This document shows positions 348 through 43,593 of a stretch of 43,635 nt of DNA, one piece after another. The translations under genes were made by a program, and so were the position numbers. This DNA comes from an uncultured Bacteroidaceae bacterium (GTDB taxonomy: Bacteria > Bacteroidota > Bacteroidia > Bacteroidales > Bacteroidaceae): the NCBI GenBank assembly GCA_905234125.1, contig CAJOGQ010000008.1, forward strand, positions 1-43,635. Direction: 5' to 3'. Position 1 is the first letter of the stretch, and every line of letters starts with the position of its first letter. The notes beneath the pieces are model-generated. The model was not told the origin of the DNA and made no database searches. It saw only the letters and a program-made list of their open reading frames with translations.

Positions 348-1550
348 TCAATATGCTTCGTCCGTTCGGATTTCCTCCTTGTCCAACTTCTTGCTGTCAA
401 TCTTGCGCCAGGCGACGATGATGTAGGCAAGGACGAAGGGGATGAGGAGACTCACATAGGCCATCGTGGTGAGAGTGAACTCGCTGGAACAGGAGTTGGC
501 GATGGTGAGCGAGGACTGGAGGTCGGCTGTGGAGGGATAGTAGGCCGTGTTGTTCCATCCTGCACAGAGGAGGAGGGCAAGGACGGTCAGGACGGTGCCG
601 ATGCCAGTAGGCCAGATTGATTTACTGTTTGACGATTTGCAATTTACATCTTCCTTTTGACATTTTCCATTCAGATATTCCCTGATGATGCCATAGAGGA
701 CGAGCACCACACCAATGAGCAGAAGGACAAGCAAGTACCACATTTCCAGGAAATTGTGGAGATACTTGTAGGGCTCGATGGAGATGATGCCTGTGACGGG
801 ATCGTAGGCATAGCCGTCCTTCAGGAGCAGGTGCACGAGATAGGCCACAAAGAGCACGAGGAAGGCGATGGTGCTGCCCATCAATCGGACATTGGCACGC
901 GAACGGATGTCGGCATCGTTCACATTATTGATAATATAGAGCGTGCCAAGAATGCGTGCGAGGAAGAAGACTGCAAAGCCGAACACGACTACCCAAGGAT
1001 TGAGCAGGGCATCGAGGCCATGAGATGCGTTTGCCCATTGGCTGATGACGGGCAGTTGAGAGTTGAGAGTTGACAGTTGAGAGTTAACATCCACCAAGTT
1101 CTCTTTCGCCACGATGAAGTTGGAGCCTTCGAAGAATGTGGCGACAGCACCACCGAGGAGCACGGGACCGACGATGCCGTTCAGCACCAAGAAGAACTGG
1201 AAGGTCTTGGCACCCAGCAGGTTGCCGAGTTTGTTTTGAAACTCATAACTCACAGCTTGGAGGACGAACGAGAAGAGTATGATCATCCAAAGCCAGTAGG
1301 CACCACCAAAACTGGTGGAGTAGAACAGCGGGAAGGAGGCGAAGAACGCTCCGCCAAAGGTGACGAGCGTGGTGAACGTGAACTCCCATTTGCGTCCCGT
1401 CGAATTGATCACAAGTCTGCGTCCTTCGGCATCATCGCCCAAAGAACCGACCAAGGAATTGGCTCCCTGCACAAAGAGGAGGAAAACCAACAGGGCTCCT
1501 AACAGCGAAACGAGGAACCACCAATATTGTTGAAGAAATTCGTAACTCAT
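348..1550 (-). CDS. cydB: Cytochrome bd ubiquinol oxidase subunit II (CydB)
   Basis: CydB is the second integral-membrane subunit of the bd-type quinol oxidase, which reduces O2 with quinol electrons under low oxygen. The 400-residue protein is strongly hydrophobic with multiple membrane segments from residue 10 onward. It is the downstream gene of the cyd operon, starting 30 bp after cydA, which is the standard order. Two internal stretches look foreign to the family: residues about 155-166 (NSQLSTLNSQL) are encoded by a tandem GTTGAGA/GTTGACA repeat at 1053-1087, and residues about 302-308 (VNCKSSN) by a 20-bp repeat at 628-647 that also occurs at 1565-1584 between cydA and cydB. Both lie where hydrophilic loops are expected, so function is probably kept. 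Identification is firm from context and composition. Confidence 0.95.
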   Translation of the reverse strand: MSYEFLQQYWWFLVSLLGALLVFLLFVQGANSLVGSLGDDAEGRRLVINSTGRKWEFTFTTLVTFGGAFFASFPLFYSTSFGGAYWLWMIILFSFVLQAVSYEFQNKLGNLLGAKTFQFFLVLNGIVGPVLLGGAVATFFEGSNFIVAKENLVDVNSQLSTLNSQLPVISQWANASHGLDALLNPWVVVFGFAVFFLARILGTLYIINNVNDADIRSRANVRLMGSTIAFLVLFVAYLVHLLLKDGYAYDPVTGIISIEPYKYLHNFLEMWYLLVLLLIGVVLVLYGIIREYLNGKCQKEDVNCKSSNSKSIWPTGIGTVLTVLALLLCAGWNNTAYYPSTADLQSSLTIANSCSSEFTLTTMAYVSLLIPFVLAYIIVAWRKIDSKKLDKEEIRTDEAY

Positions 1551-15666: not shown

Positions 15667-15743
15667 GAGCCGGTACCCCCAAGGCGTTGAGGCGGTAGCT
15701 CGATGGCGTTGAGGCGGTAGCTCGATGGCGTTGAAGCAGAGGC
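15667..15743. repeat. 22-bp tandem repeats (about 3.5 units)
   Basis: Units start at 15667, 15689 and 15711, each beginning GAGSCGGTA and ending GGCGTT; units 2 and 3 are identical, and a half unit follows at 15733. The same unit occurs at 95-138 (GAGCCAGTAGCTC...GGCGCT). GAGCCGGTAGCTC is itself a quasi-palindrome. The array lies between the GH97 promoter and the nrdG terminator, outside genes. Confidence 0.9.
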
Positions 15744-32989: not shown

Positions 32990-34228
32990 ATGAAGAAGAC
33001 CTTTATCTTTGTATTGGGAGCGTTGTTCGCACTGATGGCAAACGCTCAGCAGAAAATGACAATCACGGTGTCGAATCCTATCCAGACGGCTCGTGTGGAG
33101 ATGGTGGAAGTGGATGCAGAAGCCATCCAGAAGAAGTTGGGAACTGACCAGCAATGGAAAGTGACGGATGCCAATCATCAGGAGATTCCCTCTCAAGTCA
33201 CCTACGATGGTAAACTCATCTTTCAAGTAGGTGTGGCAGGCAAGGGAAAGTCCACTTATTATGCGGAAGCAGGTCAGCCGCAGCAATATGAGGTGAAAGC
33301 CAAGGGACGTCTCTTCACGGAGCGTCAGGATGAGTTTGGCTGGGAGAACGACAAGGTGGCTTATCGTGTGTATGGTCACGGTGGGGCTGTGGGGTATGAC
33401 CTCTTCAACAAAAGCACTTCAGACTTGATGCTCGACTATTGGTATGCCTCTGAGCAGAATCAGGAGATGCGGTCAGTGAGTAAGCAACTGAGCGAACGAG
33501 GCTATCAGGATTTGGCCGACCAGGTATATAATGCCTTCTGCTACCATATTGACCACGGGAAGGGAATGGACTGCTACACCGTTGGTCCTACCCTCGGAGG
33601 TGGCGCCAATGCCCTTCTGAATAAGGATGGTTCGCTCTTCATGCCACAATGCTACAAGACCTTTGAAATACTGGATAAGGGACCACTCCGTTTCACAGTC
33701 CGTTTCACCTATCCTGAACAGGATTTCAATGGGGAGAAGGTGACGGAAACTCGTATCATCAGCCTCGATGCTGGCAGTCACTTCAATCGTGTCATTGTTT
33801 CCTATCAAGGACTCACAAAGCCTACCCAGATGGTGGCAGGTACCGTCATTCACAAGAGCAATCCTACGGCTTACGTATTGTCTCCCGAGAATGGTTATTT
33901 AGGCTATGAGGACTTGGGCGATGCCTCTGTGTATAATGCTAAATATCGTGATGAACTCGCCAAGCAGATGGGCAAGATTTACATCGGACTTCTCTTCCCC
34001 AACAAGGACATCAGCATGACCTATCAGCAACGTGAGAATGGCATTGCGACAGGACACATCCTTGCCTACTGTCAACTCTCAACTGTCAACTCTCAACTAA
34101 TATATTACTTTGGTTCAGGATGGGACAAGAACCCCTCCACAGAATTCCATTCCCTCACCGATTGGGAGGCACATCTGAGCCAGTCAGCCATGAGTGTGAG
34201 GAACCCTTTGAAGGTTGCGCTACGCTAA
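32990..34228 (+). CDS. DUF4861 family exported protein
   Basis: 412 residues with a signal peptide (MKKTFIFVLGALFALMANA). The rest is beta-rich and matches the pattern of DUF4861 proteins (YEVKAKGRLFTERQDEFGWENDKVAYRVYG; GKGMDCYTVGPTLGGGA; a repeated FNRVIVSYQGL section), which occur with polysaccharide-degradation genes in Bacteroidetes; activity is not known to me. ATG 32990 is used because of the signal peptide and the promoter. Residues about 360-371 (CQLSTVNSQL) are encoded by a GTTGACA/GTTGAGA-type repeat (34068-34099) that also codes for part of CydB. Confidence 0.82.
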   Translation: MKKTFIFVLGALFALMANAQQKMTITVSNPIQTARVEMVEVDAEAIQKKLGTDQQWKVTDANHQEIPSQVTYDGKLIFQVGVAGKGKSTYYAEAGQPQQYEVKAKGRLFTERQDEFGWENDKVAYRVYGHGGAVGYDLFNKSTSDLMLDYWYASEQNQEMRSVSKQLSERGYQDLADQVYNAFCYHIDHGKGMDCYTVGPTLGGGANALLNKDGSLFMPQCYKTFEILDKGPLRFTVRFTYPEQDFNGEKVTETRIISLDAGSHFNRVIVSYQGLTKPTQMVAGTVIHKSNPTAYVLSPENGYLGYEDLGDASVYNAKYRDELAKQMGKIYIGLLFPNKDISMTYQQRENGIATGHILAYCQLSTVNSQLIYYFGSGWDKNPSTEFHSLTDWEAHLSQSAMSVRNPLKVALR

Positions 34229-37206: not shown

Positions 37207-37262
37207 ACGAAATAATGTAAAATGTAAAATGTTAATTGTAAAATGTTAAATGTTGGATGTAG
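37207..37262. repeat. AAAATGTAAAATG-type dispersed repeat
   Basis: Degenerate TAAAATGT/GTTAAATG units fill the spacer between the licD and cytidylyltransferase genes and run into the 3' end of the latter. A reverse-complement relative is at 31181-31207 between groES and groEL. Confidence 0.65.
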
Positions 37263-40951: not shown

Positions 40952-42034
40952 ATGAAAAGAAGTATGAAAATACTCGTCACAGGAGCAAGTGGTTTCATTG
41001 GCAGTTTTCTATGCGAAGAAGGACTGAAACGAGGCATGGAGACATGGGCTGGCATGCGGGAACATTCGAGCCGTCGTTGGCTGAAGGACGAACGGCTGCA
41101 TTTCGCCACGCTCGACATGACCAATGCCGAACGTCTGCACACACAACTGGCTGAATACAAGCAGCAGGTGGGCAGATGGGATGTCATCATCCATGCGGCA
41201 GGAGCCACCAAATGTCTGCGGAGAGAAGACTTCGACCTCCACAACTTCCAATGCACCAAGAACCTCGTCGGGACGCTCCAGGCCTTGGACATGCTCCCCC
41301 AGCAGTTCCTCTACATCAGCAGCCTCAGCGTGTTAGGTCCCATCCGAGAAGCCCAGAACGCCGATGGCACCTACAACGACATGCTCTCCTCCGACACCCC
41401 TCAACCCAACACCGCCTACGGAGAAAGCAAGGTGAAGAGCGAACAGTTCCTGAAAGAGTTCGCATCCGAACAGCCACAATCCATTCCTAATTCCTCATTC
41501 CTAATTCCTCATTTCTGCTACACCATCTTCCGTCCCACAGGCGTCTATGGCCCTCGTGAGAAGGACTACTTCATCATGGCGAAGTCCATCAAGCAGCACA
41601 TCGATTTCGGGGCAGGATTCCAGAAGCAAGTGCTGACGTTCATCTATGTCAGAGACCTCGTCAGTGCCGTCTTCTCAGCCATTGGCAAGGCCGACGTGGC
41701 CAACGGCAAAACCTATCTCGTCAGCGACGGCAGAAACTACTCCAGCCGTGCCTTCAGCGACCTGATTCAGAAGGAGTTGGGCGTCAAGCACGTGTTCCAT
41801 TTCACGGCTCCCCTGTGGCTGCTCAAAGTCATCTGCACCCTCTCCGAAATCGCCTCCCGACTCACCCATCAGGCCAGCACCCTCAATGTCGACAAATATC
41901 GCATCATGCGGCAACGCAACTGGCAATGCGACATCAGCCCCCTGCGCCAAGACCTCGGCTACGAACCCCAATGGCCACTCGAACGGGGCGTGCGTGCGTG
42001 CGTGAGTTGGTACAAGGAAAACAAATGGCTGTGA
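40952..42034 (+). CDS. NAD-dependent epimerase/dehydratase (extended SDR)
   Basis: 360 residues. The Rossmann motif TGASGFIG is at about 10-17 and the catalytic YxxxK is in NTAYGESKVKSE near 152-163, with a preceding SSLSVLGP Ser region. Family members interconvert or dehydrate nucleotide sugars or related substrates. It diverges from the glycan operon, which suggests a shared pathway. Residues about 178-187 (IPNSSFLIPH) are encoded by a 14-bp perfect tandem repeat CATTCCTAATTCCT (41482-41509), a family of insert that looks foreign to the fold. ATG 40952 or 40964 (MKILVTG) could be the start. Confidence 0.9.
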   Translation: MKRSMKILVTGASGFIGSFLCEEGLKRGMETWAGMREHSSRRWLKDERLHFATLDMTNAERLHTQLAEYKQQVGRWDVIIHAAGATKCLRREDFDLHNFQCTKNLVGTLQALDMLPQQFLYISSLSVLGPIREAQNADGTYNDMLSSDTPQPNTAYGESKVKSEQFLKEFASEQPQSIPNSSFLIPHFCYTIFRPTGVYGPREKDYFIMAKSIKQHIDFGAGFQKQVLTFIYVRDLVSAVFSAIGKADVANGKTYLVSDGRNYSSRAFSDLIQKELGVKHVFHFTAPLWLLKVICTLSEIASRLTHQASTLNVDKYRIMRQRNWQCDISPLRQDLGYEPQWPLERGVRACVSWYKENKWL

Positions 42035-42035
42035 T

Positions 42036-42069
42036 AGTTGAGAGTTGACAGTTGAGAGTTGACAGTTGA
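42036..42069. repeat. GTTGAGA/GTTGACA heptamer repeat
   Basis: Alternating GTTGAGA and GTTGACA after the epimerase stop. Nearly the same 30-bp sequence occurs inside cydB (1053-1087) and, reverse-complemented, inside the DUF4861 gene (34068-34099). Confidence 0.9.
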
Positions 42070-42307: not shown

Positions 42308-42751
42308 ATGATGCCTACAGTTTATTCAACACGCAACCAGGGATGGATTCCCTCTCTGTTCAACGATTTCTTCGACGACAACTGGATGCCAACCATCAAA
42401 TATCAGGGCACTACACCAGCCATCAACGTATCGGAAAACAAGACTGAGTACAAGGTCGAAGTGGCCGCTCCAGGCATGACCAAGGACGACTTCAAGATTC
42501 AGCTGACCAACGATGGCGACATTGTCATCAGCATGGAGAAGAAGAACGAAAACAAAGAAGGTGGCGACAAGAAGACCTACCTCCGCAGGGAGTTCAGCTA
42601 CAGCAAGTTCGAACAGCGCTTCTCACTCCCAGACAACGTAGAGAAGACCAAGATTGCCGCCAACATGGCCGACGGAGTCCTGACCATCGACATCCCCAAG
42701 AAGTCCGAGGAAGAGAAGGCCAAAGAGACGCTGAACATCGAAATCAAATAA
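42308..42751 (+). CDS. Small heat-shock protein Hsp20
   Basis: A 147-residue alpha-crystallin-type holdase. The alpha-crystallin domain spans about 30-140: PAINVSENKTEYKVEVAAPGMTKDDFKIQL, EFSYSKFEQRFSLPDNV and the closing MADGVLTIDIPK, followed by a short I-x-I-like tail (LNIEIK). The start ATG 42308 (next to ATG 42311) is 8 nt after AAGGAGG, an unusually strong Shine-Dalgarno for this phylum; the upstream frame to 42179 is rejected. A long leader of about 180 nt separates it from the GTCAG repeats. A strong terminator follows. Confidence 0.95.
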   Translation: MMPTVYSTRNQGWIPSLFNDFFDDNWMPTIKYQGTTPAINVSENKTEYKVEVAAPGMTKDDFKIQLTNDGDIVISMEKKNENKEGGDKKTYLRREFSYSKFEQRFSLPDNVEKTKIAANMADGVLTIDIPKKSEEEKAKETLNIEIK

Positions 42752-42831: not shown

Positions 42832-42844
42832 GTTTAGCTTCGTA

Positions 42845-43042
42845 GTACCTCTGATGTACCTCCGATGCATCTCCGATGTACCTCTGAATTATGTACGATA
42901 CATCTTCGTTTGTTGTTCGGTTGTTATCCATTTATATATCGAACAACAATTGGATAACAAACGGACAACAATTGGACAACAACTGGAAAAGAATGGGAGG
43001 CAACCTTACGGTAACCTCAGGGTACTCTTAGGGCACTTATGA
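42845..43042. repeat. Degenerate 11-bp phased repeat array (about 18 units)
   Basis: Cutting the sequence every 11 bp from 42845 aligns related units: GTACCTCTGAT, GTACCTCCGAT, GCATCTCCGAT, GTACCTCTGAA (42845-42888); then TGTTGTTCGGT-type; then CAACAATTGGA, TAACAAACGGA, CAACAATTGGA, CAACAACTGGA (42944-42987); then GGCAACCTTAC, GGTAACCTCAG, GGTACTCTTAG, GGCACTTATGA (42999-43042). Three sub-families keep one phase for almost 200 bp. The TTGTT part is inverse to the AACAA part. No gene is seen here. Confidence 0.85.
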
Positions 43043-43239
43043 AGCGATGGAATGTGCTTTTATACGAACACAAATCTCTCAAATCTGCACGAATGATCCG
43101 TGTCAATGTGTGTTATTGGCTGCACTAAACGCTCTAAGTTGGGAGAGGAAAGAAAGAGAACTTTTGAGACGATTGAGTGCGCAAATCAATGGTGTAAGGT
43201 GTGCTTTTTTGTATCTTGATGGAAAAAATCCTCTAAAAG
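43043..43239. other. Spacer without a convincing gene
   Basis: An open frame from 43047 exists but lacks protein-like composition and runs through the downstream promoter. The start has ACGAACACAAATCTCTCAAA and GCACGAATGATCCGTG stretches of the kind of short degenerate ACGAAT repeats found between Bacteroidetes genes. Nothing else is recognised. Confidence 0.5.
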
Positions 43240-43271
43240 TTTGCGTGTTCCATTTTTATTCACTTACTTTG
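43240..43271 (+). promoter_or_regulatory. Promoter of the MNT gene
   Basis: TTTG (43240-43243), 20-bp spacer, TTACTTTG (43264-43271; one mismatch to TAnnTTTG), 22 bp before ATG 43294. Confidence 0.6.
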
Positions 43272-43293
43272 CCAACAAGAAAAGATTATCCGT

Positions 43294-43593
43294 ATGAGCA
43301 CCAAGACAATGACAAAGATGATAGCTGAGTATTTCAAGACACAGCCCGTCTTGAAAGCATGGCTGTTTGGCTCCTATTCAAGAGGTGAGGAAAAGCCAGA
43401 CAGCGATGTGGACATACTGGTTGAATATGACCGTTCGCAAAGAATTGGTCTGTTCAAAATATCGGCAATGCATCTGGCCTTAGAGAAAATGTTAGGAAGG
43501 AATGTGGATTTGGTGGATGAGGAGACGCTTTTCCCGTGGGTAAGCAACTATGTGAACAAAGAAAAGGAACTGATCTATGAGAGAGCCTCTTAG
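43294..43593 (+). CDS. Minimal nucleotidyltransferase (MNT), MntA-like
   Basis: 99 residues of the MNT nucleotidyltransferase fold. The signature GSYSRGEEKPDSDVDILVEY (GSX10DXD, residues about 26-45) is intact, with a third acidic residue in NVDLVDEE near 73. In MNT-HEPN pairs the MNT protein transfers AMP to a Tyr of the HEPN toxin and so neutralises it. Here a second reading frame starts inside the end of this gene (43577), as in such pairs. ATG 43294 is the start nearest the promoter; a later ATG at 43309 is possible. Confidence 0.85.
   Translation: MSTKTMTKMIAEYFKTQPVLKAWLFGSYSRGEEKPDSDVDILVEYDRSQRIGLFKISAMHLALEKMLGRNVDLVDEETLFPWVSNYVNKEKELIYERAS

What the first reader, a model, noticed from the sequence alone, without database searches (positions are those of the whole stretch)
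42845..43042. About 18 consecutive 11-bp units in one phase, built from three unrelated sequence families
Seen directly: a fixed 11-bp cut from 42845 aligns GTACCTCYGAT units, then TTGTT-type units, then CAACAATTGGA units, then GGTAACCTYAG units, for almost 200 bp. Ordinary tandem repeats have one unit sequence; here the unit changes but the period does not. 11 bp is near one helical turn, so related bases face the same side of the helix. The array sits between an hsp20 terminator and an MNT-HEPN pair. Inference: an architectural-protein binding array, or the product of an unusual repeat-generating process that keeps length but not sequence.
Basis: partly seen in the sequence, partly recalled or inferred. 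Interest (0 to 1): 0.72.

Follow-up and report, generated by a model that had tools for sequence, protein, structure and literature searches.

The report
Spreading mirror-image arrays of 11-base repeats
A 200-base stretch next to a heat-shock gene is one copy of a scattered mirror-image array of 11-base repeats that also sits just in front of an uncharacterised gene, suggesting a repeat and a protein that evolve together in gut and rumen bacteria.

Summary
The array is real: lag-11 identity 0.61 against 0.254±0.032 in shuffles, 0 of 2000 reaching it. It is not three unrelated families. It is one graded unit family in two opposed arms (42836-42932, 42938-43034) meeting at a 5-bp centre.

It belongs to a dispersed family. 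The 5-bp centre recurs in 39 of 49 unique arrays. Unit spelling is genome-specific. Orthologous arrays differ by 11-bp indels in the core. Array-only copies 93-94% identical to a gene-linked array, in different surroundings, occur in this genome and in a relative.

One gene is tied to it: a basic ~243-aa protein distantly related to DUF6266. In one genus 12 of 13 gene copies have an array upstream, and gene and arrays co-occur across genomes.

Leaders of DUF6266 genes found by Pfam alone carry lag-11 arrays in 21 of 41 cases, against 0 of 39 downstream controls, with widely differing units.

Best reading: a REP/RAYT-like repeat-protein pair with an unrelated protein. Binding and mobilisation by the protein are inferred.

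The parts
42836..42932 (+). left arm: nine 11-bp units reading towards the centre, outer ACCTCYGAT-type grading into TTGTYCGRT-type
   Evidence: unit table against the arm consensus; lag-11 test
42933..42937 (.). 5-bp centre (TATAT) of the dyad
   Evidence: the same 5-bp spacing in 39 of 49 unique arrays
42938..43034 (-). right arm: the same units in reverse complement (ATCGAACAA, CAATTGGATAA ... grading to GGGAGGC, GGTAACC); outermost units fit the consensus poorly
   Evidence: inverted repeat
42910..42971 (.). inner inverted repeat, arms 42910-42933 and 42948-42971, 24 nt, 88% complementary
   Evidence: folds
42308..42748 (+). hsp20 gene upstream (context only; PF00011)
   Evidence: Pfam; 17 relatives' loci lack the array
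43294..43590 (+). nucleotidyltransferase gene downstream (context only; PF01909)
   Evidence: Pfam

Best explanation
The array is one 'solo' copy of a dispersed palindromic element about 200-300 bp long: two arms of 11-bp units pointing at a 5-bp centre. The element is paired with a gene for a basic ~243-aa protein, a divergent relative of DUF6266, and the gene-linked copy usually lies between a promoter-like box and the gene's start codon. Most likely it works like a REP/RAYT pair built on an unrelated protein. SHOWN: anatomy; near-identical array-only copies of a gene-linked leader at other sites of the same genome; co-occurrence with the gene; genome-specific dialect shared by gene-linked and solo arrays; gain and loss of 11-bp units. 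INFERRED: the protein binds the arrays about one site per helical turn, controls its own gene through the leader copy, and helps arrays to be copied or kept alike. Units would expand and contract by slippage in 11-bp steps, mostly in whichever arm is still pure, so the period is kept while the sequence drifts outward from the centre.
For: Centre spacing is 5 bp in 39 of 49 unique arrays, and 74 of 85 with spacers 0-12 allowed (some of those loci were fetched with an N5 pattern). Polarity: 0 of 81 rows have inverted units upstream; the opposite layout was found twice against 70. Gene link: 12 of 13 gene copies found by protein search in 45 genomes of the genus have a lag-11 array upstream. In 27 loci scored, the array centre lies 95-223 bp before the gene in 24, and no downstream region scores above 7. 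The gene or a piece of it is in 14 of the 119 stretches fetched by array pattern alone. Co-occurrence: 10 of 12 array-rich genomes have the gene or a fragment, against 1 of 33 others, Fisher p 2e-7. Box TAnnTTTG 40-230 bp before the centre and reading towards the gene in 21 of 26 gene-linked arrays; inward boxes at 10 of 96 solo edges, outward boxes at 26 of 148. Dialect: Hamming distance 1.07 within against 2.52 between genomes, 0 of 2000 permutations; without the array-richest genome 1.67 against 2.54, 2 of 2000. Array-only copies: C7 leader to C30, 283 bp at 94%, no gene found on C30:1-12000; G018 C40 leader to C10, 227 bp at 93%, ending 5 bases before the ATG. Promoter-array-gene cassettes in different flanks: L179/L189 and L173/L177. 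Unit-step differences. Protein pI 8.8-9.6. DUF6266 leaders 21 of 41 against 0 of 39 downstream and 5 of 300 ordinary leaders of this genome.
Against: No transposase, nuclease or DNA-binding domain was recognised in the protein. The AlphaFold model is poor (mean pLDDT 54) and Foldseek gave no match at E<=0.001. One full gene copy (G033:C24) has no array. G031 and G032 have arrays but no gene was found. 20 of 41 DUF6266 leaders show no lag-11 array, 9 of them among the 14 from outside the window's family, and only 6 of the 21 positive leaders have a TAnnTTTG box upstream. The exact-centre pattern is found in 12 of 399 genomes: 4 carry the gene (G006 9 copies, G471 3, G033 2, G023 1), 8 have a single match without the gene; the reversed control matches in 3. 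No exact empty site or target duplication was obtained. Copy number is low.
Confidence: 0.5

Rival explanations
1. Operator or architectural arrays: one helical turn per unit, bound cooperatively by the linked protein or by another factor. Solo arrays are regulatory or nucleoid sites kept by selection, and spread is rare and incidental.
For: Helical-turn period; usual 5-bp centre; leader position of the gene-linked copy; a solo array kept at one site in five species; dialect matching.
Against: Arrays, solo and gene-linked taken together, show no clear promoter preference: of the 38 with both neighbours called by a simple ORF finder, 11 lie between convergent and 14 between divergent genes. Array-only copies 93-94% identical in new contexts indicate spread.
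Confidence: 0.25
2. RNA-level element: the leader transcript folds into a long hairpin with about one A-form turn (11 bp) per unit and acts as an attenuator or RNase/protein target.
For: Most gene-linked arrays lie between a promoter-like box and the gene; strong fold z-scores for the window copy.
Against: No clear G-U excess: 98 G-T against 83 C-A mismatches on the transcribed strand of 26 leaders, 201 against 178 in 74 arrays, with a within-locus polarity p of 0.057. No Rfam family in the 10 sources scanned. 63% of arm positions pair in gene-linked arrays.
Confidence: 0.1
3. Neutral minisatellite: slipped-strand duplication of 11-bp units plus template switching makes quasi-palindromes, with no trans factor.
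For: One arm is usually purer (lag-11 0.86 against 0.65); 11-bp gaps sit in the core arms; this genome also carries 7/14-bp and 22-bp arrays; similarity between solo arrays of one genome could partly reflect shared units.
Against: Usual centre and polarity, position-dependent unit types, genome-wide dialect, and linkage to one gene family in many genomes.
Confidence: 0.12

Closest known systems
REP/BIME elements with RAYT (REP-associated tyrosine transposase) genes (PMC2817692; abstract and outline seen)
   Same: Dispersed extragenic palindromes; a cognate gene that carries the repeat beside it; gene presence correlates with repeat abundance; repeat and gene appear to co-evolve.
   Different: The protein has no transposase match (DUF6266-like); the array is only 5' of the gene; the repeat is a ~200-bp array of 11-bp units; the unit sequence changes while the period stays; copy number is low.
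BrickBuilt MITE of Porphyromonas gingivalis (PMC4596501; abstract and passages seen)
   Same: Intergenic, multicopy element of a Bacteroidetes species holding a tandem array that grows and shrinks by whole units.
   Different: Unit of 23 nt, with leader and tail ends; no cognate gene described in the passages seen. Here the unit is 11 bp, in two inverted arms, with a cognate gene.
parC of plasmid R1 with ParR (PMC9426499; passages seen: ParR of R1 needs at least two 11-bp repeats; a cited title gives ten direct repeats flanking the promoter)
   Same: 11-bp iterated sites beside the gene they may regulate.
   Different: Direct rather than inverted repeats, on a plasmid, with ParM/ParR; the linked protein here matches neither in Pfam.
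DUF6266 (PF19781), family of unknown function
   Same: A distant homologue of the linked protein (L286) is a DUF6266 member, and about half of the DUF6266 leaders tested carry 11-bp arrays.
   Different: The core group itself has no PF19781 match; 0 papers in the held library mention DUF6266.

Membership tests
REP/RAYT | cognate protein is a Y1/HUH tyrosine transposase | tested here: not met
   No Pfam match of that kind in three homologues or in the 11 members of A1; none in NCBIfam, and only weak unknown-function matches in PHROGs.
REP/RAYT | gene flanked by two repeats in inverted orientation | tested here: not met
   Array 5' only; downstream scores 0-7 in 27 loci (two of them the same locus), null of 300 random windows: 95th percentile 6, 99th 9, maximum 29.
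REP/RAYT | gene presence correlates with repeat abundance | tested here: met
   10 of 12 array-rich against 1 of 33 other genomes; the cut at 3 pattern hits was chosen after seeing the counts, and two of the ten count through fragments.
REP/RAYT | usually more than 100 copies per genome (abstract of PMC2817692) | tested here: not met
   21 pattern matches in this genome, at six array loci plus two lone matches; at most 53 matches in a relative, several per array.
BrickBuilt MITE | 23-nt tandem unit | tested here: not met
   11-bp units in two inverted arms.
BrickBuilt MITE | intergenic, multicopy, whole-unit expansion | tested here: met
   a few arrays overlap called ORFs.
parC/ParR centromere | directly repeated sites | tested here: not met
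   Arms are inverted about a centre.
parC/ParR centromere | linked ribbon-helix-helix ParR and ParM | tested here: inconclusive
   No such match in the linked protein, but the model is poor and neighbours were not scanned.
DUF6266 (PF19781) | match above the curated cut-off | tested here: inconclusive
   Core proteins: no match. Homologue L286 (G551), found by the core profile at 9.9e-8, matches PF19781 at 34.1 bits, cut-off 23.4.
known RNA family (Rfam 15) | match at gathering score | tested here: not met
   Only two tRNAs in 10 sources, 87,459 bases.

The most novel reading that the evidence does not exclude
A protein superfamily of Bacteroidota (DUF6266 and its divergent branch) is coupled to tandem arrays in which the period of about one helical turn is conserved but the base sequence is free. 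Each genome has its own dialect, set or read by the protein, and the array is copied from the gene's leader to new intergenic sites. That would be a repeat-protein system defined by geometry instead of sequence.
Probability: 0.4. Interest if true: 0.88.

Novelty: new variant of a known kind. Interest (0 to 1): 0.74.

Why it matters
It gives an unnamed protein family a concrete handle, the array in front of its own gene, and makes an old question testable: what maintains dispersed palindromic repeats where no RAYT-type transposase is involved. If the protein reads helical-turn geometry while the unit sequence drifts, it would be an unusual case of DNA recognition and of concerted evolution inside bacterial genomes.

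Tried and rejected
Three unrelated repeat families: rejected, one unit in two orientations. hsp20-linked function: not supported, the 17 relatives' hsp20 loci printed have no array; the script stopped there, so the remaining loci were not examined. RNA hairpin with wobble pairs: no clear G-U excess, no Rfam match. A phage or plasmid origin: no tblastn match of the protein (one homologue, L173) in the phage and plasmid collections and none confirmed in viral contigs; 17 viral contigs match the 3-unit pattern, the class-B scan selected none of them, and they were not read further. A wide taxonomic spread of the array itself: many matches outside Bacteroidales are non-palindromic 11-bp repeats, several inside coding sequence, so they do not show that the element is widespread. 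Structure: one AF2 job, low confidence, two Foldseek searches without a match at E<=0.001. Exact empty site: not obtained. Lag-10 arrays in DUF6266 leaders: 3 of 41, too few to claim. First promoter-box count (20 of 26 against 4 of 96) missed boxes nearer than 90 bp to the centre; recounted.

Full report
OBSERVATION. The 11-bp phase at 42845-43042 is real and far beyond chance (lag-11 identity 0.61; shuffles 0.254±0.032; 0 of 2000). It is the highest lag-11 place in the 43.6-kb window. The sequence is also an imperfect palindrome that folds better than all 200 shuffles. Re-read from its centre (42933-42937, TATAT), the left arm and the reverse complement of the right arm follow the same unit, grading from TTGTYCGRT near the centre to ACCTCCGAT further out; the outermost right-arm units fit poorly.

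A DISPERSED FAMILY. A DNA search of 45 genomes of the genus found similar places in this genome and in relatives; all 16 regions then fetched, chosen for that similarity, contain lag-11 arrays. In this genome the two-unit pattern gives 21 matches against 1 for the reversed control: six array loci (contigs C7, C8, C19, C21, C29, C30) and two lone matches (C17, C75); a seventh array lies on C18. Scanning all loci held at that time gave 70 arrays made of a left chain and an inverted right chain, duplicates included, and 2 of the opposite polarity. Of 49 unique ones, 39 have exactly 5 bp at the centre and 5 have 7. A later scan allowing spacers 0-12 gave 74 of 85, but some of those loci had been fetched with a 5-bp-spacer pattern, so 39 of 49 is the fairer figure. 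Over 148 arms the consensus keeps the same 11-bp phase to 11 units from the centre. The strict centre pattern itself is rare: 12 of 399 genomes of the family, none in this genome; four of the 12 carry the gene described below and hold 15 of the 23 matches, eight have one match and no gene found.

BEHAVIOUR. In an orthologous solo array of five species the gaps in the core are 11 bp; in the outer units they are 22 and 33, and one of 96 in L190 is not a multiple of 11; gaps of other lengths lie in the flanks. One arm is usually purer than the other (lag-11 0.86 against 0.65). Unit spelling is a genome dialect: Hamming distance 1.07 within against 2.52 between genomes, 0 of 2000 permutations, all 74 arrays used. 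One same-locus pair was included there; without it 1.08 against 2.54, and without the array-richest genome as well 1.67 against 2.54, 2 of 2000. Genome labels of loci were assigned by me from contig names and lengths. In this genome a 283-bp segment holding the array in front of one gene copy (contig C7) recurs at 94% identity on C30, where no gene was found within the 12 kb read; the 5-bp centre differs between the two. In G018 a 227-bp copy at 93% ends 5 bases before the start codon. In G006 several solo arrays on different contigs are 80-91% alike over 155-205 bp, part of which may reflect shared units. The upstream flank of the five-species array was found in further genomes; 11 of those loci were read and none has the array there, but the other flank could not be matched.

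THE LINKED GENE. Among neighbours of arrays one protein recurs. Searched in 45 genomes of the genus it gives 14 matches, 13 gene copies, in 9 genomes. Twelve of the 13 have a lag-11 array just upstream; G033:C24 does not. In 27 loci scored (L059 and L142 are the same locus) 24 have an upstream palindromic array with a 5-bp centre, 95-223 bp before the match start. The three without are L264 (that G033 copy), L156 and L069 (gene fragments); L262, a 33%-identical homologue, scored only 11. The null of 300 random windows has 95th percentile 6, 99th 9 and one value of 29. No downstream region scored above 7. Genomes with three or more array-pattern hits (12) have the gene or a fragment in 10; the other 33 have it in 1 (Fisher p 2e-7). 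The threshold of three was set after seeing the counts, G035 and G037 count through fragments, and the fragment search covered only part of the genus. A Bacteroidota -7 box (TAnnTTTG, motif recalled) lies 40-230 bp before the centre, reading towards the gene, in 21 of 26 gene-linked arrays; inward boxes are at 10 of 96 edges of solo arrays and outward boxes at 26 of 148 edges. Some 'solo' arrays with a box (L063, L227) are in G037, where L063 ends inside the gene. The gene-linked array is thus probably a transcribed leader and most solo arrays are not. Cassettes of promoter, array and gene occur in different flanks in related species (L179/L189, L173/L177).

THE PROTEIN. The core proteins have no match in NCBIfam or in the PDB sequences and none above a curated cut-off in Pfam; the PHROGs matches are weak (E 0.13 and 0.38). 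They are basic (pI 8.8-9.6). The AF2 model is weak (pLDDT 54). Profile search of 399 genomes of the family found relatives, fragments included, in 19, and in a sample of 395 genomes of the phylum only in the window's own genome. One relative, L286, is a DUF6266 protein by Pfam, so the group looks like a divergent branch of that superfamily; this rests mainly on that bridge and on alignment A2.

THE GENERAL TEST. DUF6266 genes were then collected by Pfam model alone, without regard to arrays. Of 41 leaders long enough to test, 21 have a lag-11 array above the maximum of 40 shuffles over lags 5-30; 0 of 39 downstream regions do. In a repeat, lag 22 (12 leaders) is the only other lag that stands out, lags 9 and 10 reaching 3 each. 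Of 300 ordinary gene leaders of this genome, judged against 20 shuffles, 5 show lag 11; matched leaders of the other genomes were not tested. Sixteen of the 21 are among the 27 leaders from the window's own family and 5 among the 14 from elsewhere in the phylum, so the effect is strongest near home and the leaders are not all independent. The unit varies widely from leader to leader; some related copies share similar units. Eight of the 21 are palindromic beyond 25 shuffles, and 6 have a TAnnTTTG box upstream. Distant homologues of the core protein (L262, L280, L281, L290, L291) also have lag-11 leaders (32-41 of 44, not shuffle-tested) with other units.

MECHANISM. I take the most likely picture to be a repeat-protein pair that behaves like REP/RAYT: the protein recognises the array, its own leader included, and arrays are copied to intergenic sites and kept alike within a genome, while slippage in 11-bp steps remodels the pure arm. 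Shown: anatomy, near-identical copies at new sites, co-occurrence, dialect, unit steps. Inferred: binding, autoregulation, and any role of the protein in copying. A purely regulatory or architectural array is the main rival and the two are not exclusive. No clear RNA-level signal was found (98 G-T against 83 C-A).

KNOWN KINDS. It works like REP/RAYT in coupling and co-variation but fails membership (no transposase match, array on one side only, low copy number). BrickBuilt shares the intergenic multicopy tandem design but has a 23-nt unit. R1 parC shares 11-bp sites but they are direct repeats. Searches of the held open-access library returned no paper describing this element in the listings seen; no paper there mentions DUF6266. 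Subscription literature was not searched.

CHECK. On going back over the calls I recounted the promoter boxes, the gap lengths and the dialect test.

Noticed in passing
L035:4261-4353, L036:4369-4503, L041:19826-19973; window 15683-15734: A second dispersed family of 22-bp arrays (unit like GCGTTGAGCCGGTAGCTCAAAG) in non-coding regions of the same genome.
   Followed up: partly
window 1054-1089, 34068-34098, 37214-37261, 41482-41513, 42032-42069: Tandem heptamers with periods 7/14/21; lag 7 is the commonest period in ordinary leaders of this genome (32 of 300).
   Followed up: no
L097, L100, L105, L155, L165 (array positions): 11-bp repeats TTGTYCGGTAC antisense to the linker of proteins that look like Fic or AlbA_2-type families (my reading, no family search); they translate to an 11-residue repeat such as YRTSTEQVPNK, in records labelled Bacteroidetes, Deltaproteobacteria and others.
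   Followed up: partly
L091, L102, L106, L134, L150: Palindromic arrays of a similar unit but with a 7-bp centre in MAGs labelled Bacteroidetes (5 of 49 unique arrays), several flanked by AAGCTCAT-like sequence; possibly a sister family.
   Followed up: no
L053:280-435 (G000:C29): This genome's own DUF6266 gene (C29:596-1159, one stop inside) has a leader array of a different unit, ATACCAACTCT, and a solo palindromic array lies downstream at C29:1870-2057.
   Followed up: partly
window 43058-43096 and 43176-43285: Further dispersed repeats between the array and the nucleotidyltransferase gene, matching several places in this genome and relatives.
   Followed up: no
G037:C43:3-80, G037:C54:3-80: The linked gene is cut at contig ends in G037, as expected if near-identical copies broke the assembly, so gene counts in draft genomes are lower bounds.
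   Followed up: no
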